From the NCBI GenBank assembly GCA_024399495.1, contig JAKSNY010000004.1:62001-126000 (forward strand): a DNA stretch of 64,000 nt. The letters run 5' to 3'. The notes beneath the pieces were generated by a model. The model saw only the letters and a list, made by a program, of their open reading frames with translations. It did not search any database and was not told where the DNA came from. The stretch comes from Paludibacteraceae bacterium. GTDB taxonomy: Bacteria > Bacteroidota > Bacteroidia > Bacteroidales > Paludibacteraceae. Below, in pieces: positions 8,846 to 61,400 of the stretch (positions are counted from its first letter, which is position 1; every line of letters starts with the position of its first letter). A program made the position numbers and the translations under genes.

Positions 8846-8880
8846 AACTATGTATAATGTATGATGTATGATGTATGAGT
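8846..8880 (+). repeat. ATGTATGATGT tract
   Basis: A short tandem of about 8-bp units of the ATGTATGATGT type (TGTATAATGTATGATGTATG...). It fills the gap between the ABC ATPase and the macroglobulin-like gene. The same tract occurs at about 14022, 48864, 59636 and 61374. Confidence 0.8.
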
Positions 8881-11900: not shown

Positions 11901-14021
11901 CCAGAATCAATGCTTATGATACGGGGAGTTGGTTCCATTAATGATGATATGGCAGATGGTTTTGCAGAGGCGGAAGAGGCGGCAGATGGTGCATATCCTG
12001 ATGTGTCGGAGATTTCAGACGGTTCAGACGGCTCTGTTGCGTTACGTACTGATTTTGCTGAAACCGCAATGTTTATACCTCAGTTACAGGTTAATAACGG
12101 AGAATGTTCTATTGATTTTGAGGCACCACAGGCACTTACATCGTGGAAACTAATGATTCTTGCCTATAACAAGGATATACAGACGGCTGTAATCACTGAT
12201 ACCGTAATCACTAAAAAGAGCCTATCCGTAAATCTTAATCTGCCACGTTTTATGCGTGCTACAGATAGTGCAAACCTATCTGCCATAGTGGAGAATACCT
12301 CAGATTACGATGTTAATGCCACTGCATTGTGGAGCGTAACAGATGCTTTCTCAGGTGCCGTGTTGGCAGAAACCACACAAGACATAAGCATTAGGCATAA
12401 GGCTCAAGAGGTTGTACAATGTAAAGTGAATGTGCCTGATTCTGCATCGGTGCTTAAAGTAAGGGTAACTGTAAAAACTGCCGGCATAACAGATGGTGTG
12501 GAGAACTTGGTACCTGTACTATCCACTAAAATTATGGTGACAGAGACCAAACCTATAGAACTAAGCACAGATAATATAAGTTCCACTATGGCACTTCAGG
12601 CATTGCCATACGTAAGTGAGCCTAAGTTTGAGAATGCCATTGATTTGGCACTTGCATACTATATAAATTGGCTTGCCGCTGAGGCTATGAGCCACGATGA
12701 CAAATTACGTGAGTCATTAAAATCACTGAAAAAGGGAGACTTGAGCGTGGAATCGCCTCTAAGTGCAAACCAAAATCTTAAAAACATTCTGTTGCAGGAA
12801 TCGCCGTGGGTTGTGGAGGCTAAGATGGAGACAGACAGAATAAACTCACTTACAGAACTTCTTAATACAGGCAAGCAGTCTGCACAGAGAGAAAAACTGC
12901 TACGCAAGTTGTTTAAACTGCAGAATGCCGATGGTGGCTTTGCATGGTTTGACGGTGGTGAGTCTAGTGAATATATAACCAAATTTGTGGCGGAACAGTT
13001 GAAAAAGACAGACTATAACGGAAAGGAGCTTACATCGGCGTTAGATTATCTAAGTAGTAAAATGGAGACTGATTATCAGGATATTAAGGATAAGAAGAGT
13101 GAGATTAAGCCTACTGTCTATGATATTAAGTCAATGCTTATTATGGGTAAACGCACCACGGAGTCTTATAAACATAACTATAACAGTATTAAGCAGTTCT
13201 GGGCACAGTACTCATTGCCTACACAAGCCGTTATAGCACAGGTTCTTTATGCTGACGGCGATAAAGAACTTGCGGCAAAGGTTATTGACAACCTACGTAA
13301 ATATATGGTTTATAAACCTATATTGGGGCTATATTTCCCTAACACTTCCACCATAGAGACTCAGTTAGAATACATTAAGGCTTTTGCTACGGTAAGCCCT
13401 AACGATGAGGAACTCTCAAATATGAAACTTTGGTTGCTGTACAATAAACAGTCCAATATGTGGGAGAATTCAGTTGCCACAGCCGATGCTTTAGGAGCGT
13501 TGCTGCTTTTTGGAAAATCTGTTACCGTATCAGACTCAGAGGCATTGGATTTGAGTGTCTCTTACAGACAGTATATGGCAGATATGACTCAGGTTCAGAA
13601 ACATACAGACAGCAGATTAAAACTTGATAAAGGGTACTATGTGGAGCGTAACGGTGTTCTTCATAAAATTAACCCCGATGAGGGTGTCAATGTTGGTGAT
13701 AAAGTGACAGTGCGTCTTGTAGTTACTGCTGACCGTGATATGGAGTTTATCCACATAAGGGATTTACGCCCTGCAGGATTGGAGCCTGTAAATCAGATTT
13801 CCAGAAGATTTATACAAAGCGGATTGTCATACTACATGACCACCAAAGATTGTACCACAGACTTTTTCTTTGATAGAATGCCTAAAGGTACATACGTGTT
13901 TGAGTATCAATTAAATGCAAACCTATCGGGCAACTATGCCGCAGGCTTTGCAACCATAGAGAGTATGTATTCACCAGACTTTAAATCGCAAACTGAAGGG
14001 GTTAGAATGGATATAAAATAA
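8901..14021 (+). CDS. Alpha-2-macroglobulin-like exported protein without thioester
   Basis: A 1706-residue exported protein with an N-terminal signal peptide (about 1-22, no lipobox Cys). An MG2-type domain is marked by FMDRGVYRPGQKV near residue 475, the A2M domain by PQALTSWKLMILAYNKD near 1075, and the alpha-helical TED-like region spans about 1240-1500 with NADGGFAWFDGG near 1341. Bacterial A2Ms are thought to trap proteases or guard the envelope. Where related proteins have the CxEQ thioester after an LPY segment, this one has NAID (about 1245-1248), so covalent trapping by thioester is not possible. No pbpC partner is adjacent. Confidence 0.9.
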   Translation: MKRTTILFLALISLVAVASTVSINIKKRLDEMHQLYLTDRDSLFSQIEERKRSFEKTEDPVERSVYRMAVATMYQEYYNNNRYAIDGRTDIEGAAPDDMREWSRKNFKDSIAWYLDKALENRQALLDASTSGYRENITEGKDSALMPTMYDILIDKAIRMVEDDSVKVNELYNRLIEAHKNERAVHDAAQFRLYMYNTDRKNSECQVGFAEQYKGTPLYVYVKAYELNHCTLSPKAKHDACVEILDKYGDNPYITSILNVKETLERPYLEMENGCEDGNKSNLLYKGEEETIWLKYKNLQSVKVNIYRLNRSAYTYSENGDGVIELVKSETIALPDSADYDVHTYAYKLKRDTCGIYLVNILANGELKYTLSNHFFVTDIFVLDKAVDGGYEFYVVDRRNGMPLNNVEVKVYEGKNGAYRVLKTDIHGVAKVQLNRKTGAVCTFKYGKDEFYPAKSIWRYKQQRILNPHTYTEFFMDRGVYRPGQKVMAKGIVYNVRGDEYSLAVATPVTVKLTDANGSVVDEKEVKTNDYGSFYVEFTIPEGLLSGNFSLYTKSGSKYFRVEEYKRPTFEVKVDSASAKTINDKITISGNARYYRGSSVSGGTVKYKVTSSAVYYHWCNCILPQTKYVVASGNAVCDYDGNFTIEFLPEIISENRHPFYRLTTEVSVTDMSGETQMCNHSLVTGTADFSLSCPIDELMDKSKVKDMVPDAYDCAGNKVSVCGNYTLRSASNVYEGEFTSGQKLDIKFSALKSGKYTLTLNAVDSKGRAVDYKTTFIAYSVNDKKPAVDTLQWVIPVKTECENSDIAIVVAGSSYDTYTMLELYDQGKLVERKVEKMNSANKRFKIIYKPIYSDRLTAVFTTIYNGKAVIKSVTLNRVLKSRDLSIELSHIKKLYEPGEKDKWNISVKDVDGKDKSAEAVVAMYDLSLDAIASNHWSFNPVHKTFIDAPVWSVPYVSPIRGMVYAGNIKHYEYQFAYPKLYFDQDSHYYMRAGMNLYKSAPESMLMIRGVGSINDDMADGFAEAEEAADGAYPDVSEISDGSDGSVALRTDFAETAMFIPQLQVNNGECSIDFEAPQALTSWKLMILAYNKDIQTAVITDTVITKKSLSVNLNLPRFMRATDSANLSAIVENTSDYDVNATALWSVTDAFSGAVLAETTQDISIRHKAQEVVQCKVNVPDSASVLKVRVTVKTAGITDGVENLVPVLSTKIMVTETKPIELSTDNISSTMALQALPYVSEPKFENAIDLALAYYINWLAAEAMSHDDKLRESLKSLKKGDLSVESPLSANQNLKNILLQESPWVVEAKMETDRINSLTELLNTGKQSAQREKLLRKLFKLQNADGGFAWFDGGESSEYITKFVAEQLKKTDYNGKELTSALDYLSSKMETDYQDIKDKKSEIKPTVYDIKSMLIMGKRTTESYKHNYNSIKQFWAQYSLPTQAVIAQVLYADGDKELAAKVIDNLRKYMVYKPILGLYFPNTSTIETQLEYIKAFATVSPNDEELSNMKLWLLYNKQSNMWENSVATADALGALLLFGKSVTVSDSEALDLSVSYRQYMADMTQVQKHTDSRLKLDKGYYVERNGVLHKINPDEGVNVGDKVTVRLVVTADRDMEFIHIRDLRPAGLEPVNQISRRFIQSGLSYYMTTKDCTTDFFFDRMPKGTYVFEYQLNANLSGNYAAGFATIESMYSPDFKSQTEGVRMDIK

Positions 14022-14155
14022 TGTATGATGTATGATGTATGAAGAGCCGATAGGCGAATAGAGAACGATAGTTCTCCGCGAAGCGTAGGGGTTTGGGGAT
14101 ATGCCCCAATAAAAAAGGAATAATAATTTTTAACGAGCCGATAGGCGAGATGAAA
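14022..14155. repeat. Composite intergenic repeats before rimM
   Basis: An ATGTATGATGT tract (14022-14042) is followed by GAGCCGATAGGCGA at about 14043 and again at about 14139. Between them lies a reverse-strand copy of the CGCTTCGCGG module (14080-14125; on this strand CCGCGAAGCGTAGGGGTTTG). No gene is supported here. Confidence 0.75.
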
Positions 14156-47374: not shown

Positions 47375-48865
47375 ATGGAAAGGTTTTTAGTATTGCCGCT
47401 CATTATATTGGTGGCGTTAGCATCGTGTAAGAAAAACAATAACGGGAAGGAGCTTACAGAGAGTCCTGAACTTGTTTCTGCTAAGATTAGTGAGATAGGG
47501 GATACTTTTGTTAAATTTAAGGTAGCGGGTGTTGACCAAAACGGAGATGCCACCACTAAGTTTGTAGTTGTGTTTCCATTACAAAAAGAGATTGGAGAAG
47601 TGGAGTGTGAGGTAGATGATAAGGGAATAATTGGGGTTGAGGGGCTTACACCTAACACAAACTATTTTGTAGGCATATTTACAAAAGACAGATGCAATAA
47701 TGTATCGTACAATAGCGAGGACATAAATTTTACCACATCTGGACCTAAAACAGTAACATTGGGTGCTGTACAGGGCGGTACGGTAAAGATGTTTTATAAG
47801 GGAGAGGAACTAAAATCGGGTGAGACAGTGCCACAAAACTCTTACGTAACGGTAGAGGCAGTGGCAGACGATTACCATTTGTTCAGTGGCATCAATATAT
47901 ATAAAGGTGTGGCGGTGCGTGACTCTTTTAAAGTAACAAAAGATACTACCGTAGTGGCGGAGTTTACTGCTGTAGATGCGTTGCCTGCTACAGATAAGTA
48001 TAAGGTTTGTAACTACAATATAAGGCTATATACTGAGGACGATAAAAAAGACAAACATTGGACAAATCGTAGGAGTTATCTGTTTAAAATGATAGAGAAA
48101 CACACAATGGATGTGTGTGGGTTAGAGGAGATGACACCACAGCAAGCACCTGATTTTGAGAAAAATATGCCTGATTATGAGTATGTGGGCTATGGCAGGG
48201 ATAACGGCAAGGCATACGGAGCAGGCAGTTCAGGAGAGCAGACAGGCTTGGTATATAACAAACGCCATTTTGTAAAACAAGACCAAGGCAGATTCTTCCT
48301 TTCTAACACCCCAAATAAACCCTCAAAGGTTAGCGGAGCATCATTTAACCGCATGGTTACATGGGTGAAACTAAAAGAGCGTAAATCAGATGTTATATTC
48401 TATTTCTTTGCCACCCATTTTGACCACCCTACAAACCAAACAGGTATAAACACACGTTCTAAAGAGGCCGATATAGCACTTGTAGAGGTGCCTAAAATAG
48501 TGGGGAATAATCCTATGTTCTTTGTGGGTGACTTTAATTGCCGTCCAGAAGAGCCTGCATATCAAAAACTTGCAGCCCAATGGAAAGACTCATTCATAAC
48601 TATGGGCGATAAGGCACAGGGAGGCTATGTTTGCAACGATGCTCAACTTGCACGTCCAGGACTACAGGCAGACTGTGCCTGCAAGGGCAATACATACACA
48701 GGCCTGTATAACGTAAATGACTCATTGCCTAAGCGTATAGATTTTGTACTATATAATGAGGTTCATGCATATCCTATATCTTACATTGCAGATGGTGACA
48801 ATATGGGACACACCACACTGCCATCAGACCATGTGCCGGTGGTTACAGAGATGGTTATTAAATGA
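47375..48865 (+). CDS. Exported endonuclease/exonuclease/phosphatase lipoprotein
   Basis: A 496-residue lipoprotein: lipobox ALASC (Cys18), an N-terminal beta domain (about 30-125, FNIII-like), a second beta segment, then an endonuclease/exonuclease/phosphatase domain (about 205-496). Metal and catalytic motifs are intact: YNIRLYTEDD, GLEEM, THFDHP, VGDFNCRPEE and LPSDHVPVVTEM. The C-terminal domain resembles Bacteroidales proteins annotated as DNase I-like or sphingomyelinase-like phosphodiesterases; the substrate is unknown. It is anchored in the envelope, so it probably acts on extracellular nucleic acid or phospho-compounds. Its stop codon lies in an ATGTATG tract. Confidence 0.87.
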   Translation: MERFLVLPLIILVALASCKKNNNGKELTESPELVSAKISEIGDTFVKFKVAGVDQNGDATTKFVVVFPLQKEIGEVECEVDDKGIIGVEGLTPNTNYFVGIFTKDRCNNVSYNSEDINFTTSGPKTVTLGAVQGGTVKMFYKGEELKSGETVPQNSYVTVEAVADDYHLFSGINIYKGVAVRDSFKVTKDTTVVAEFTAVDALPATDKYKVCNYNIRLYTEDDKKDKHWTNRRSYLFKMIEKHTMDVCGLEEMTPQQAPDFEKNMPDYEYVGYGRDNGKAYGAGSSGEQTGLVYNKRHFVKQDQGRFFLSNTPNKPSKVSGASFNRMVTWVKLKERKSDVIFYFFATHFDHPTNQTGINTRSKEADIALVEVPKIVGNNPMFFVGDFNCRPEEPAYQKLAAQWKDSFITMGDKAQGGYVCNDAQLARPGLQADCACKGNTYTGLYNVNDSLPKRIDFVLYNEVHAYPISYIADGDNMGHTTLPSDHVPVVTEMVIK

Positions 48866-48897
48866 TGTATGATGTATGATGTATGATGTATGAGGAG
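48862..48897 (+). repeat. ATGTATGATGT tract
   Basis: Four units of ATGATGTATGATGTATG between the lipoprotein and SufT-like genes; the first TGA is the stop codon of the lipoprotein gene. Confidence 0.8.
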
Positions 48898-54202: not shown

Positions 54203-54250
54203 TCGTCATGCTGAGCGAACACTCGTCATGCTGAGTGAAACGAAACATCT
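54203..54250. repeat. Two GTCATGCTGAG(C/T)GAA repeats
   Basis: CTCGTCATGCTGAGCGAA and CTCGTCATGCTGAGTGAA in tandem, followed by CGAAACATCTC, a sequence of a kind dispersed in many bacterial genomes. Confidence 0.7.
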
Positions 54251-54251
54251 C

Positions 54252-54290
54252 AACCTCCGATAAGAAAATATCTCTTATCGGAGGTTTTGT
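54252..54290 (+). terminator. Terminator of mutA-mutB
   Basis: Perfect 13-bp stem AACCTCCGATAAG / CTTATCGGAGGTT (54252-54264 and 54274-54286), 9-base loop, then TTGTTT. Confidence 0.9.
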
Positions 54291-54327: not shown

Positions 54328-54359
54328 TTTGCGTAGAATTGGATAAATATTTATCTTTG
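54328..54359 (+). promoter_or_regulatory. Promoter of the six-gene envelope operon
   Basis: TTTG at 54328-54331, 20-base spacer, TATCTTTG at 54352-54359, about 40 bases before the first ATG. Only one promoter is seen for the operon. Confidence 0.7.
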
Positions 54360-54399: not shown

Positions 54400-54882
54400 A
54401 TGAAAAAGTTAGTTTTAATTTTGGTTGCGGTTTCATTATCGCTTGCTTGTATGGCAAAAACATCTGATAAAAAGACAAAAGAGTGGCTGTATGATATAGA
54501 GTGTGCCGGTGTAGGTGCTCAAGGTACTTATTTGGTTAAGGTGTATTCTTATTCAAACGTTCAGTCAAAAGCACAGAAACAGGCAGTTAAGAATGCTGTT
54601 CACGGCGTTCTTTTCAAGGGTGTTATGGGTAAGGGTAGAGAATGTAACTCACAGCGTCCGTTAGTAAAGTCTGATGTTGCAAGCCAACATGAGGATTTTT
54701 TCAAGAATTTTTTTGCTGAGGGAGGCGAGTATGCAAAATATGCCTCTGCAACAGGTGCACCTGAAACATCTAAAGTAGGCTCCCAATATAAAGTAGGTGT
54801 AGTGGTTTCTGTACAAAAAGACCAACTACGCAGAGACTTGGAAGAGGCAGGTATTATTAAAGGTTTAAGTTCAGGTTTTTAA
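54400..54882 (+). CDS. Exported protein, paralog A of the envelope operon
   Basis: A 160-residue exported protein with a signal peptide (about 1-19, ending LACMA; only a weak lipobox). It is paralogous to the gene product at 55834: both share K-N-A-V-x-x-V-x-F-x-G, then C-N-[ST]-Q-x-x-L, then a [YF]-x-x-x-F-F...G-E-[YF]-x-K-Y segment. The pattern AxKNAV on a helix is reminiscent of LPP20-like domains, but I do not claim the family. Function unknown. It opens the operon 40 bases after a good promoter. Confidence 0.8.
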   Translation: MKKLVLILVAVSLSLACMAKTSDKKTKEWLYDIECAGVGAQGTYLVKVYSYSNVQSKAQKQAVKNAVHGVLFKGVMGKGRECNSQRPLVKSDVASQHEDFFKNFFAEGGEYAKYASATGAPETSKVGSQYKVGVVVSVQKDQLRRDLEEAGIIKGLSSGF

Positions 54883-54894
54883 AAAATTCCTATT

Positions 54895-55815
54895 ATGAGA
54901 AAATTTATATCAGTAATGGTTATTTGTGCTGTGGCGGTATGCTCCGTTATGGCACAAGATGTAGTATATCTTAAAAACGGAACCGTAATTAACGGTAAGG
55001 TTACAAAGAATGATGCCGTTACAGTGGAGATAGACTCAAACGGCAGACAGCTAAGCTACAAGGCAATGGATGTACAAAAAGTACAGATAGGCAGTTCTGC
55101 CGTTACAGTGCCTGAGACTCCTAAACGTCCTAAATATAAGGATTATGAAACGGCAGAGAAAGGCTATTGGACAGCCGTTGAGTTTTGGGGTGGCGGTGCT
55201 GTAGATTTTGGAGGCAAGCCTAATATGTGTAACGTTGATATTCATTGGATTAACGGATACAGATTTAATGAGTGGATACGTGTGGGTGTAGGTCTTGGTT
55301 TCCGTTACTATCTTGGCGATTTGAATTACAAATCAGGTGGGGTTGACTATTCTGAACCAATCAGCTCAAAGTACTCTTGGACTAATCCTAATAATCAAAA
55401 AGAGACTCAAGGCGGTAATCAGTGGGCAATTCCTCTATACTTGGATTTACGTGGAAACATTATGTCTATGGCTACACGCTTATGCGTTCCTTACTGGTCA
55501 TTTGATGCAGGTTACACATTTACAGGGAAGTTTGTAAATCAAAAGGATTACGTAGATGATAAAACTCCAGGTACTGCAGACCCTACAAAAGATATTGACG
55601 GAAAGTTAGTTCAAGGTCAAGGTTTCTTCTTCTCACCTACACTTGGTGTAAAGATTATGGGACCTCGTCATAGTCTGCTTATAGGTATAAGCTATATGGG
55701 TCAGATTATGCCACGATACACAGAATACACATCGGGTCCACAACCTAACGGTATTCCATACGTAAAGCCGCAATATACAAATTTCATTATGGGAAGAATT
55801 GCATACGAGTTCTAA
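54895..55815 (+). CDS. Outer-membrane beta-barrel protein of the envelope operon
   Basis: A 306-residue exported protein: signal peptide (about 1-20, VMAQ), a short beta domain (DVVYLKNGTVINGKV, about 22-60), then alternating beta strands to a terminal aromatic residue (MGRIAYEF), as expected of an outer-membrane barrel. No homolog with known function is recognised. It lies 12 bases downstream of paralog A and 18 bases upstream of paralog B. Confidence 0.8.
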   Translation: MRKFISVMVICAVAVCSVMAQDVVYLKNGTVINGKVTKNDAVTVEIDSNGRQLSYKAMDVQKVQIGSSAVTVPETPKRPKYKDYETAEKGYWTAVEFWGGGAVDFGGKPNMCNVDIHWINGYRFNEWIRVGVGLGFRYYLGDLNYKSGGVDYSEPISSKYSWTNPNNQKETQGGNQWAIPLYLDLRGNIMSMATRLCVPYWSFDAGYTFTGKFVNQKDYVDDKTPGTADPTKDIDGKLVQGQGFFFSPTLGVKIMGPRHSLLIGISYMGQIMPRYTEYTSGPQPNGIPYVKPQYTNFIMGRIAYEF

Positions 55816-55833
55816 TTTAAAAACAGTAAAGAT

Positions 55834-56319
55834 ATGAAGAAAAGTTATTTTATAGGTTTGGCATTGCTGCTTATAGCCCCGATGTCAATGTATGGTATAA
55901 AGAAAAGTAATTCAGCCGCTTATAAGAATGTGCCTACAGAGTGCCTTAATGTAGAGCTTGACGGTTCGCAAACTCTTAGAGTGTATGGTAAGGGCAGAAA
56001 CCGTACTGATGCCATAGAGCAGGCTAAGAAAAATGCTGTCTATGATGTTATATTTAACGGCATAAAGAGCGGTAGCGGCGGTTGCAATACGCAGCCATTG
56101 CTATTGGAGGTTAATGCTAAAGAGAAATATGAGTACTATTTTAATGTGTTCTTTAAGGATAAAGGAGAGTTCCTTAAATACATAAGTATGGAGGACCAGC
56201 GTATTGAGACAAAAAAATACGGCTATACAGGAACACAAATGTACTATGCCATAACAGTGCGTGTGTTACGTCCAGAGCTAAAACAACGCCTTATAGATGA
56301 CGGCATACTTAAACCTTAA
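55834..56319 (+). CDS. Exported protein, paralog B of the envelope operon
   Basis: A 161-residue exported protein (signal peptide about 1-21), paralogous to the product of 54400. It shares the AKKNAVYDVIFNGI segment, the Cys-Asn-Thr-Gln, and FFKDKGEFLKYIS. The two paralogs may form a heteromer around the barrel protein. No known function. Confidence 0.8.
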   Translation: MKKSYFIGLALLLIAPMSMYGIKKSNSAAYKNVPTECLNVELDGSQTLRVYGKGRNRTDAIEQAKKNAVYDVIFNGIKSGSGGCNTQPLLLEVNAKEKYEYYFNVFFKDKGEFLKYISMEDQRIETKKYGYTGTQMYYAITVRVLRPELKQRLIDDGILKP

Positions 56320-56361
56320 GCATTTAATATGGTCTAACAGATAAACAAAAAACTTTTAGAT

Positions 56362-57312
56362 ATGAAAAGAATATTGATTTTTGTAACATCGCTATTAGTT
56401 GCGGTGTCAGCAATGGCAGAATCACATGCTGCAAAACCAACTTTAATGGTAGTTCCAAGTGATGCTTGGTGTAACGAGAACGGTTACATGCAGGAATTTG
56501 ACAATCAAGGTACAGTGGAGTTGATTCCAGACTACAAGAAAGCACTCCAGAGTGACCAAAACCTAATGCTTGCAATCTCTAAGATAAATGAGATGATGGC
56601 AGACAGGGGTTTCCCACTAAAAGATTTGGAGAGTAATCTTAAATCAATATCAAACCGTACAGCAGAGATGAACATGACCACCAGCAAAAGCGGTTCCACA
56701 ATAGCCCAAAGCCCTATGGACATGTTAAAGAATACTGCCAAGGCGGATATTATTATCCAATTAGGGTGGTCTGTAACTTCTAATGGACCCAAACAGACAT
56801 TGACATACATTTTAAGAGGCTTGGATTCCTATACAGACAAGCAGATAGCAGGTGCCAGCGGTAGTGGTGCTCCATCTATGAGTGCAGATGTTCCTGTACT
56901 ACTTGAGGAGGCTGTTATGGACAAGATGGACGAGTTTGCAGGCAGACTTGACGACTATTTCAATGATTTGTTCAGCAATGGCAGAGAGGGTGTGTTTGAA
57001 ATCCGTGTATTTGATAATGGCTCAGGCATTGATTTGGAGAGTGAGTATAATGGTATGGAACTTAGTGAGATAATAGATGACTGGATGAACCAGAACACAG
57101 TGGAGCACCGTTATTCTCAGTCAGAGGCATCAGAGAACTATATGTTGTTTGAGCAGGTTCGTATGCCGCTTAACGATGTTAATGGTAAGGCTGTAACAGC
57201 AAAATCTTTTGCAGACCAATTGCGTAAATATTTAAAAAACACATTCCAAATAGAGTCTAAGACAGCTAATCGTGGATTGGGTAGGGCATATCTTATAATT
57301 GGAGAAAAGTAA
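56362..57312 (+). CDS. DUF6175-like exported protein
   Basis: A 316-residue exported protein (signal peptide about 1-19, SAMAES). It begins with AKPTLMVVPSDAWCNENGYM, then KISKINEMMADRGFPLKDLES: a conserved Bacteroidales pattern I know as DUF6175, reminiscent of the CsgG/TolB-like N-terminal fold. This domain assignment is by memory. Function unknown. It is 42 bases after paralog B. Confidence 0.75.
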   Translation: MKRILIFVTSLLVAVSAMAESHAAKPTLMVVPSDAWCNENGYMQEFDNQGTVELIPDYKKALQSDQNLMLAISKINEMMADRGFPLKDLESNLKSISNRTAEMNMTTSKSGSTIAQSPMDMLKNTAKADIIIQLGWSVTSNGPKQTLTYILRGLDSYTDKQIAGASGSGAPSMSADVPVLLEEAVMDKMDEFAGRLDDYFNDLFSNGREGVFEIRVFDNGSGIDLESEYNGMELSEIIDDWMNQNTVEHRYSQSEASENYMLFEQVRMPLNDVNGKAVTAKSFADQLRKYLKNTFQIESKTANRGLGRAYLIIGEK

Positions 57313-57330
57313 CATAAAAATAGCAGGATT

Positions 57331-58287
57331 ATGAAAAAGTTAAGTTTTATTATATTGGGTATGTGTATGCTTGGCATTCAGTCATACGCCCAAAATGTGG
57401 ACTTTGAGAACGATAAAAGCACTTGGATTCATCTTTCAATCCTGATACCTGACCAAGAGGGTGAGGCTATAACCACAGGAGCAAAGAGTTATCTTACCAA
57501 CAAGTTAAAACAGATTGCCACAAAGAACGGAGTTGCCGCCAATGAGGATTTCAGCAGGTTCTTTATAACAACTGTAATAACACCATTGACCAAGGATGTG
57601 TTGCCTGGTCCACCTGCACAGGTTGCAGAGAATTTGGAAATGACATTCTATATTGCCGATTATTATGACCAAAAAGTGTATTCAAGCACATCTATGGAGA
57701 TAAAGGCAATAGGCACTAACGATACCAAGGCTTACATAAACGGTATTAAGAATATAAATGTAAACAACAAGGAGTTGGCATCATTTATGGATGAGGGTAA
57801 AAAGAAAATCATAGCCTACTACAATGCACGTTGTGCCCAGATTATGAAGATAGCACAGACAAAGGCAGACCAAAAGCAGTATGAGGCTGCACTGTATGAC
57901 CTTGTTTCAGTACCTGAGGTTTGCGATTGCTATGATGAGGTTCTTGCACTGTCACAAAAGATATATCAGCAGTATATAGACAATCTATGCCAAATAAATT
58001 TGGCTAAGGCTAGAGCCGCATGGGCTGCACATCAGAACTCATCAGGAGCAGAGGATGCCGGTCAGTATCTGTCGCAAATCCTACCAGATGCCTCTTGTTA
58101 CGGTGATGCTATGGCACTTTATACAGAGATTAAGGCCAAGGTGCTTGATGATTGGAAGTTTGAGATGAAAATCTATCAAGACCAAGTTGATTTGGAAAAA
58201 CAGCGTATAGAGGCTATGCGTCAGGTTGGTATAGCATACGGTAATCATCAGCAACCGGTTACTACAGTATTCCCGTGGCTAAGATAA
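57331..58287 (+). CDS. Exported protein of the envelope operon, unknown
   Basis: A 318-residue exported protein (signal peptide about 1-20, SYAQ). A beta N-terminal half (about 30-150) is followed by a helical, TPR-like C-terminal half (about 160-300; KADQKQYEAALYDLVSVPEV and NLAKARAAWAAHQ). No catalytic motif is seen. It overlaps the next gene by 13 bases, so the two are coupled. Confidence 0.75.
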   Translation: MKKLSFIILGMCMLGIQSYAQNVDFENDKSTWIHLSILIPDQEGEAITTGAKSYLTNKLKQIATKNGVAANEDFSRFFITTVITPLTKDVLPGPPAQVAENLEMTFYIADYYDQKVYSSTSMEIKAIGTNDTKAYINGIKNINVNNKELASFMDEGKKKIIAYYNARCAQIMKIAQTKADQKQYEAALYDLVSVPEVCDCYDEVLALSQKIYQQYIDNLCQINLAKARAAWAAHQNSSGAEDAGQYLSQILPDASCYGDAMALYTEIKAKVLDDWKFEMKIYQDQVDLEKQRIEAMRQVGIAYGNHQQPVTTVFPWLR

Positions 58288-59627
58288 GAGAATTATTATT
58301 AGTAATATGTTCAATATCCTGTGTGGCGATGTCTGCACAGGATGTTGTTAATGATGGCATTCAGCGTTATCGCCGTAATGCCATTGCCACTATGATGGTT
58401 CATCATAGTGAAGATGAGTTTGGTAAGGATATTAAGGACGCTTATCTTGAAATTCCCACCCCTGATAAGTATGATAACCACGATGTGGGGTTAAAAGTTT
58501 TGGAGAGTGAGTGGTTTTCCGGTGTAAAACCTAAAGAGAAAGGTTTGTATAAGGCTGTTTATGGCAAGAATCTCTCTAATGCAGAGATAGAGCGTAACGG
58601 TATTGCATTGGAAAATTTCCTCAACAAGACCAATATAGGAATGTATATGGTTGCCAAGTGGTTTAATCTCTCATCGCAGGATTCGTCTGAGTTTAATTAT
58701 TCCACCGCTACATTTAATACGGAACTTATACAGCAGCGTGGCTTGTATGATGCCACAGCATTTGATGTGGATATGGCACGCCATACCATCAGAGGCGATG
58801 CTATGCTTGCAGATGCAGGTGAGGAGCTTATATCTCAATCATTTATTATAGTCAATGATATGACTTACGTAACTGCGGAGCAGAAAGCGGCGGCAGCCAA
58901 AGCGGCATTGGCAGTGCTTGGCGGTATTGCAGACGCTTTTTTGGGCGGTTCATCGGGCAGACAGTTGGCATCTACGGCAGGAGCCATAGCAGACAGTTTT
59001 ACAGGTTTTAAGGTACGTAACCACTCTTATCTGTTCCAGCTGCAATGGAATGACTCAATAGCGGCTGTATTCTATAAGGACTACTACACAGAGACTCCTG
59101 ATGAAGAAAAAATAAGGTCGTTTATTCAGAATGATTCCCTGTTTAAAATAAAATATGTGGCTCATGAGTATGAATATGATGAAAATTCGGTGCTAAAAGG
59201 AAAATATGACCGCCATGATTTGGTTAAGATAAACTGTACAAGAAGCCAGGATAAGAATATATCCCAATTACAGGTTAAATATGAGGATTTTAAGCTAAAG
59301 ACACCTGTTTATCAAGTTGTAAGGAATGAAAAAGGGAAAGTTCTGTATTATAAGGCAAAAGTTGGGTTGAAGGATGGCGTTAAGCCTACAAGCAAATTTC
59401 AGGTTGTGCAACGTATAATAGACCCCAAGACCAATAAGTCAAGATACAAATATGTAGCCACCCTAAAACCTATTAAGGGTAAGATATGGGATAACCGCTA
59501 TATGGCTACAGAGGAGCACGAGGAGGGTTCAGAATTAGATGCCACTCAATTTAAGAAGTCAAGTGGCGGCGAGATTTATGAGGGAATGCTCATTATAGAA
59601 GGCAAATACAGCAAAGTGGAGCAGTAA
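58275..59627 (+). CDS. Large exported protein closing the envelope operon
   Basis: A 450-residue exported protein starting with GTG (58275, inside the preceding gene) and a signal peptide (about 1-21, SAQD). It contains a Gly/Ala-rich hydrophobic stretch near residue 210-240 (AALAVLGGIADAFLGGSSG) that could insert in a membrane, and a C-terminal beta half (about 290-450). No known family is recognised. A terminator follows its stop. Confidence 0.75.
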   Translation: MAKIRELLLVICSISCVAMSAQDVVNDGIQRYRRNAIATMMVHHSEDEFGKDIKDAYLEIPTPDKYDNHDVGLKVLESEWFSGVKPKEKGLYKAVYGKNLSNAEIERNGIALENFLNKTNIGMYMVAKWFNLSSQDSSEFNYSTATFNTELIQQRGLYDATAFDVDMARHTIRGDAMLADAGEELISQSFIIVNDMTYVTAEQKAAAAKAALAVLGGIADAFLGGSSGRQLASTAGAIADSFTGFKVRNHSYLFQLQWNDSIAAVFYKDYYTETPDEEKIRSFIQNDSLFKIKYVAHEYEYDENSVLKGKYDRHDLVKINCTRSQDKNISQLQVKYEDFKLKTPVYQVVRNEKGKVLYYKAKVGLKDGVKPTSKFQVVQRIIDPKTNKSRYKYVATLKPIKGKIWDNRYMATEEHEEGSELDATQFKKSSGGEIYEGMLIIEGKYSKVEQ

Positions 59628-59636
59628 ATCAGAGGT

Positions 59637-59706
59637 GATGTATGATGTATAATGTATGATGTATGAGAGTCAAGAGACAAACAAAATCCCTTGACTCTTG
59701 TTTTAT

Positions 59707-59712: not shown

Positions 59713-61381
<1,669 letters not shown>

Positions 61382-61400
<19 letters not shown>

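What the first reader, a model, noticed from the sequence alone, without database searches (positions are those of the whole stretch)
54400..59627. Six-gene operon of exported proteins with no recognised function
One promoter (54328-54359), six genes with gaps of 12, 18, 42 and 18 bases and one 13-base overlap, and a terminator. All six have signal peptides. The set comprises two paralogs flanking an outer-membrane barrel, a DUF6175-like protein, a beta plus helical-repeat protein and a 450-residue protein with a hydrophobic Gly/Ala stretch. This looks like an envelope-spanning secretion or surface-assembly complex. No known family was recognised apart from DUF6175, so it may be undescribed.
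Basis: partly seen in the sequence, partly recalled or inferred. Interest (0 to 1): 0.75.

Follow-up and report, generated by a model that had tools for sequence, protein, structure and literature searches.

The report
Conserved envelope operon resembling flagellar ring
Six neighbouring genes, most of which recur together across the Bacteroidota, probably build a structure under the outer membrane from parts that remotely resemble a ring around some flagellar motors and a curli secretion protein; its function is untested.

The parts
54252..54286 (+). terminator-like hairpin after the preceding gene, upstream boundary of the operon
   Evidence: 14-bp stem with T-rich tail
54328..54359 (+). Bacteroidota-type promoter TTTG-N20-TATCTTTG
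   Evidence: exact consensus match; 7 in window vs 1.54 expected; activity not tested
54400..54882 (+). g1, exported 160-aa protein, upstream paralog (C-terminal GF type; SHS2/LPP20-like by motif only)
   Evidence: upstream and downstream copies separate with 0 of 100 tips misplaced
54895..55815 (+). g2, barrel-like protein with a Lepto_7_Nterm/Hfq-like N-terminal segment; optional part
   Evidence: NCBIfam NF047433 E 3.2e-9 but below cut-off; in 20 of 79 loci; barrel assignment by eye only
55834..56319 (+). g3, exported 161-aa paralog of g1; in relatives often with a lipobox
   Evidence: lipobox pattern in 23 of 50 downstream copies against 2 of 50 upstream copies; none in the window's own copy
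56362..57312 (+). g4, DUF6175; N-terminal half CsgG/LpoB/TolB_N-like
   Evidence: Pfam E 2.7e-118; 14 divergent members vs CsgG-like set hhalign score 55.4, 142 columns, best of 20 shuffles 22.5; close members alone not above controls
57331..58287 (+). g5, alpha/beta N-terminal domain plus helical C-terminal part (by alignment, no model); homologs in one lineage carry an LPP20 domain
   Evidence: 19 of 20 DUF6175 genomes, 0 of 41 others; L069 homolog LPP20 E 6.7e-6 over cut-off
58275..59627 (+). g6, 450-aa FlgT-like protein (alpha/beta domain plus C-terminal beta domain) with a Gly/Ala helical hairpin (residues 201-241) between two strands; some homologs carry a barrel-like C-terminal extension
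59663..59701 (+). terminator-like hairpin
   Evidence: RNA fold -14.9 kcal/mol, z -2.99

Best explanation
The operon encodes an outer-membrane-anchored periplasmic scaffold or collar made of CsgG/FlgT-type domain proteins. g6 is a FlgT-like subunit (TolB_N/CsgG-like domain plus C-terminal beta domain), g4 (DUF6175) and perhaps g5 add further CsgG/TolB_N-like domains, and g1/g3 form a two-paralog layer with a possible SHS2/LPP20-like fold. Anchoring to the outer membrane would be by a barrel (g2 here; a barrel-like C-terminal extension of g6 in some other lineages) and by lipid on g3 in many relatives. I expect g1/g3 with g4 to oligomerise around or beneath a barrel, as FlgP/FlgT/FlgO do around the flagellar LP ring. 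Shown: operon layout, co-inheritance, gene fusions, export signals (hydropathy), CsgG-like relation of divergent DUF6175 members, a CsgG protein beside g1 in half of the g6-less loci, FlgT-like predicted fold of g6. Inferred: SHS2 fold of g1/g3, barrel exchange between g2 and g6, ring formation, physical complex, location, and role (structural or regulatory support of an outer-membrane channel or of wall attachment).
Against: g1/g3 do not reach LPP20 by profile once signal peptides are removed (15.8 vs shuffled max 15.6; 15.7 vs 12.0 over 12 columns for divergent members). The FlgT matches have an rmsd of 10-11 A, and most other rows match only the C-terminal beta domain. Pfam lists no FlgT, FlgO, CsgG or LPP20 match for any of the six window proteins. 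g4 vs CsgG with close members alone is not above controls (17.6 vs 19.7). Five of 12 g6-less loci have no CsgG protein next to the core and one more has only a weak LpoB-like one. g2 and long g6 never share a locus, but after removal of duplicate loci this is not significant (97 loci, p 0.07; 0.11 for the 11 barrel-like ones). No structure was obtained for g1, g3, g4 or g5.
Confidence: 0.48

Rival explanations
1. A CsgG-like export machine: g6/g4 form an outer-membrane gate that secretes a surface polymer or protein. The Gly/Ala helical hairpin of g6 would insert in the membrane.
For: CsgG-family proteins beside g1 in 6 of 12 g6-less loci; Gly/Ala hairpin between two strands in the g6 model, with a hydrophobic 18-mer (above 1.6) past residue 40 in 29 of 115 g6 homologs; WG-repeat-like proteins nearby in 12 of 79 loci (WG confirmed by Pfam for one of them, L137, and for a neighbour in L197).
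Against: CsgF in 0 of 61 genomes; no Pfam CsgG match in the own genome; no substrate-like gene that recurs in most of the 79 loci; the CsgG-fold proteins also match the LpoB model, a non-secretory regulator.
Confidence: 0.2
2. A peptidoglycan or envelope regulator module of LpoB type: outer-membrane-tethered CsgG-fold proteins that reach through the wall to activate a synthase.
For: LpoB (PF13036) scores beside CsgG for the proteins next to g1 in g6-less loci; lipobox tendency of g3.
Against: LpoB is one small lipoprotein (general knowledge); this is a five- to six-gene cassette with fusions and paralogs. No synthase gene was recognised among recurrent neighbours, though not every neighbour was scanned.
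Confidence: 0.15
3. A set of exported proteins kept together by shared regulation, without a physical complex.
For: g2 is optional; g6 lies upstream in 41 and downstream in 35 of 79 loci; extra g6 copies away from the core exist.
Against: g1+g4 fusions, near-fixed core order, and g5 beside g4 at all 19 places found in 61 genomes.
Confidence: 0.15

Closest known systems
Flagellar H ring of Vibrio (FlgO, FlgP, FlgT; PDB 3w1e, 8z5n)
   Same: g6 predicted fold matches FlgT best; small linked set of exported proteins; FlgP and FlgT contain SHS2-like folds (passages of PMC12222027), g1/g3 possibly so
   Different: No sequence-family match to FlgT or LPP20 models; Bacteroidota are not known to be flagellated (general knowledge, not tested); a DUF6175 component; paralog pair; optional barrel-like protein
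Curli secretion component CsgG (PF03783) and LpoB (PF13036)
   Same: Divergent DUF6175 members align with CsgG-like proteins; Pfam CsgG members sit beside g1 in 6 of 12 g6-less loci
   Different: CsgF in 0 of 61 genomes; none of the six window proteins reaches the CsgG model; lipobox in only 12 of 120 g4 and 1 of 115 g6 homologs
LPP20 lipoprotein family (PF02169)
   Same: g5 homologs of one lineage carry an LPP20 domain; some neighbours of the cassette match weakly; motif-level resemblance of g1/g3
   Different: g1 and g3 do not match LPP20 by profile
Pfam DUF6175 (PF19672)
   Same: g4 is a full-length member
   Different: Pfam's entry describes this one protein without function; the partners and the CsgG relation are added here

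Membership tests
DUF6175 (PF19672) | full-length match over curated cut-off | tested here: met
   394.8 bits vs cut-off 23, positions 1-293 of 293
Curli system | CsgF present | tested here: not met
   0 of 61 genomes, control rings in E. coli; own genome 82.5% complete
Curli system | CsgG over Pfam cut-off in the own genome | tested here: not met
   0 matches in G000
Curli system | CsgA/CsgB curli repeats and CsgE | not tested
   no search made
Flagellar H ring (FlgO/FlgP/FlgT) | FlgT-like fold of a component | tested here: inconclusive
Flagellar H ring (FlgO/FlgP/FlgT) | sequence match of window proteins to Pfam FlgT/FlgO/LPP20 models | tested here: not met
   none listed at E up to 1
Flagellar H ring (FlgO/FlgP/FlgT) | flagellum genes in the genome | not tested
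LPP20/SHS2 for g1/g3 | profile similarity to LPP20 domains | tested here: inconclusive
   15.8 vs shuffled max 15.6; divergent set 15.7 vs 12.0 over 12 columns
CsgG/LpoB/TolB_N superfamily for g4 | profile similarity above shuffled controls across the core domain | tested here: met
   55.4, probability 92.7, 142 columns, shuffled max 22.5 for divergent members; all non-fused members 34.9 vs 18.7; but close members alone 17.6 vs 19.7, not above controls
Type IX secretion | cassette tracks T9SS | tested here: inconclusive
   SprA in 60 of 61 genomes, so it cannot discriminate
Known anti-phage defence (PADLOC) | confident match of any of the six proteins | tested here: not met
   only E 0.008 and 0.02 for g3 to type I specificity subunits

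The most novel reading that the evidence does not exclude
A flagellum-independent relative of the flagellar H ring: a ring or collar of SHS2 and CsgG/FlgT-type subunits built under the outer membrane of Bacteroidota around a barrel, an unrecognised envelope machine spread widely in the phylum.
Probability: 0.3. Interest if true: 0.8.

Novelty: new variant of a known kind. Interest (0 to 1): 0.58.

Why it matters
It gives a family of unknown function (DUF6175) a set of constant partners and a remote relationship, and suggests that FlgT/CsgG-type domains, known from flagellar rings and curli export, are used in a separate conserved assembly in a phylum that is not known to swim with flagella. 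If true, it would bear on where the flagellar H-ring parts came from, and it names a testable envelope complex in gut and environmental Bacteroidota.

Tried and rejected
Curli operon: rejected (CsgF 0 of 61). Phage defence: no match of note. Plasmid-borne: no match of g4 in 72,556 plasmid records. T9SS link: uninformative. PDB sequence-profile searches of g1/3, g5, g6 and g4: no relevant hit, best E 0.009 to a ribosomal protein. NCBIfam gave g6 a sub-threshold match (E 4e-4, residues 207-250) to an unnamed 'hypothetical protein' model, not pursued. First hhalign runs gave 86-87% for g1 vs LPP20-like lipoproteins and g5 vs CsgG-like; signal peptides had been left in, and the values fell to 2% and 1% after trimming, so they are not used. 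The LPP20 alignment held reverse-strand translations and was rebuilt. The LPP20-g5 value of 94% covers only 25 columns and probably reflects the few g5 members with an LPP20 domain. g2 barrel vs long-g6 C-terminus: no similarity (15.2); exclusivity of the two not significant once duplicate loci are removed.

Rows dropped and duplicates: one of 80 loci (L097) had no g4 ORF called and is outside the 79; the 80 are the best of at least 562 confirmed places. Among the 80, three pairs (L086/L087, L092/L093, L095/L096) share an identical stretch of at least one family protein, and six loci of the genome sets repeat contigs of the 80; counts include these duplicates. One search used 25 of 30 LPP20 loci (three cut at contig ends, two not used). 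The CsgG-like set has 7 members, of which L067_4 is below the Pfam cut-off. Of the 12 g6-less loci, L053 and L189 are contigs under 4 kb, so g6 could lie outside; in L058, L061, L069, L072 and L199 the ORF next to g1 (or to g4 where no g1 was called) is no CsgG.
Full report
OBSERVATION. A Bacteroidota-type promoter matches exactly at 54328-54359 (consensus recalled), and a hairpin with a T-rich tail follows the last gene at 59663-59701. A terminator-like hairpin lies after the upstream gene at 54252-54286, so the operon is bounded. All six proteins begin with a hydrophobic segment; this is a hydropathy rule, not SignalP. The window lies in a 2.08-Mb genome, 82.5% complete. The closest named locus, 89% identical in g4, is a Paludibacteraceae MAG from horse faeces.

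FAMILIES. Among the six, Pfam and NCBIfam recognise over cut-off only g4, as DUF6175. g2 has a sub-threshold Lepto_7_Nterm segment (E 3.2e-9) and a C-terminal part that reads like a barrel by eye. PADLOC gives nothing of note.

LINKAGE. In 61 genomes (the own one and 60 relatives), 20 have DUF6175. g6 occurs in 16 of them and in none of the other 41. g5 occurs in 19 of them and in none of the other 41, each time beside g4. Fisher p values are 2e-11 and 7e-15, not corrected for relatedness. DUF6175 itself is patchy: 25 of 345 genomes drawn from the class and 13 of 296 from the phylum. Within the genus, genomes with DUF6175 (7 of 16) are larger than those without (p 0.002 on rounded sizes), which suggests loss in smaller genomes, though several are incomplete.

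A scan of the species-genome collection gave at least 562 confirmed relatives, of which the best 80 were kept: Paludibacteraceae, Prevotella, Dysgonomonas, Flavobacterium, Chryseobacterium and others by record title. In the 79 with a called g4, g1/g3 lies upstream in 75 (two copies in 49), g5 downstream in 75, g6 nearby in 73 (41 upstream, 35 downstream, some both), g2 in 20 and WG-repeat-like c4 in 12 (WG confirmed by Pfam for one c4 protein, and for a neighbour in another genome). Over all sets, g1 and g4 are fused into one protein in 6 of 111 distinct g4 loci.

PARALOGS. In 50 loci with both copies (49 plus the window) the upstream and downstream g1/g3 copies form two groups with no tip of 100 misplaced (support 1.0). 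46 of 50 upstream copies end in GF or FF against 0 of 50 downstream; a lipobox pattern is seen in 2 of 50 upstream and 23 of 50 downstream copies. Of 26 loci with one called copy, 9 fall with the downstream group and 17 with the upstream one. The duplication is therefore old and the copies are specialised, the downstream one often carrying a lipobox.

REMOTE RELATIONS. Twelve loci with g4 lack g6. Six of them carry a Pfam CsgG protein over cut-off next to g1, on the side away from g4 (L053, L055, L066, L189, L190, L191); L066 passes by 0.2 bits. One more has a weak LpoB-like protein (L067), and in five the neighbouring ORF is no CsgG. After removal of signal peptides, the CsgG-like set aligns with 14 divergent DUF6175 members over 142 columns (score 55.4, best of 20 shuffles 22.5) and with all non-fused DUF6175 members at 34.9 against 18.7; with the close DUF6175 set alone it does not exceed controls (17.6 against 19.7). 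It also aligns with the C-terminal part of g6 (39.7 against 18.2) and weakly with g5 (28.7 against 20.9; 25.3 against 17.9). g1/g3 show no clear profile relation to LPP20; the SHS2/LPP20 reading of g1/g3 rests on the strand-G-x-G-helix pattern seen in the alignments and is my inference. One g5 homolog (L069) has an LPP20 domain over cut-off, and LPP20 matches lie beside DUF6175 in four genomes of that family.

LITERATURE. DUF6175 is in none of 5.39 million papers of the held library. 'LPP20, CsgG, Bacteroidetes' together: none. 'FlgT, Bacteroidetes, homolog': one paper, seen in the listing only. From passages of PMC12222027: FlgP, Lpp20 and FlgT share an SHS2-like fold, and ring formation in the family goes with an insertion after the SHS2 helix. 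From passages of PMC6375700: the Vibrio H ring consists of FlgO, FlgP and FlgT. From passages of PMC3521004: curli systems do occur in Bacteroidetes, and many CsgG-model matches are non-curli paralogs.

READING. The most economical explanation is an outer-membrane-anchored periplasmic scaffold built from CsgG/FlgT-type domains. The barrel may be g2 here and a C-terminal extension of g6 in other lineages: 11 of 14 long g6 proteins look barrel-ended by eye, and g2 and long g6 share no locus, but with duplicates removed this is not significant (97 loci, p 0.07; 0.11 for the 11; the earlier values of 0.04 and 0.06 included duplicates). Curli is rejected (CsgF 0 of 61). Secretion remains a rival, helped by the hydrophobic stretch in 29 of 115 g6 homologs. 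The physical complex, the ring and the function are inferred. A referee should discount the linkage p values for shared ancestry and wait for models of g1 and g4.

Noticed in passing
window 8850-8880, 14021-14044, 48865-48895, 59638-59661, 61371-61394: A 7-bp tandem repeat (ATGTATG)n sits at or within about 11 bases after the stop codon of five + strand ORFs. The exact 22-mer occurs 124 times in the genome (72 +, 52 -) and 0 times for the reversed control; on contig C21 all listed copies are +.
   Followed up: partly
window 54204-54235: Two direct copies of CGTCATGCTGAG, 20 bases apart, just before the hairpin that ends the preceding gene.
   Followed up: no
L047:2596-5983, L054:736-6343: A g6 paralog (L047) or the g6 gene (L054) preceded by WG-repeat-like proteins (by eye; a c10-type protein too in L047), suggesting a separate WG-g6 association.
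   Followed up: no
L056:9620-11515, L062:10437-11735, L064:3819-5820, L196:5233-6483: A 416-435-aa exported protein with an N-terminal 'KPxWV' LPP20/FlgT_N-like pattern (by eye), in L056 and L064 with a small LPP20-like lipoprotein beside it, lies next to the cassette outside the genus; no Pfam match over cut-off for those scanned.
   Followed up: partly
L048:1621-5017: Two copies of a 275-277-aa lipoprotein-like ORF with the same N-terminus flank an ATPase-like ORF between the mutase gene and the cassette, which looks like a duplication or insertion.
   Followed up: no
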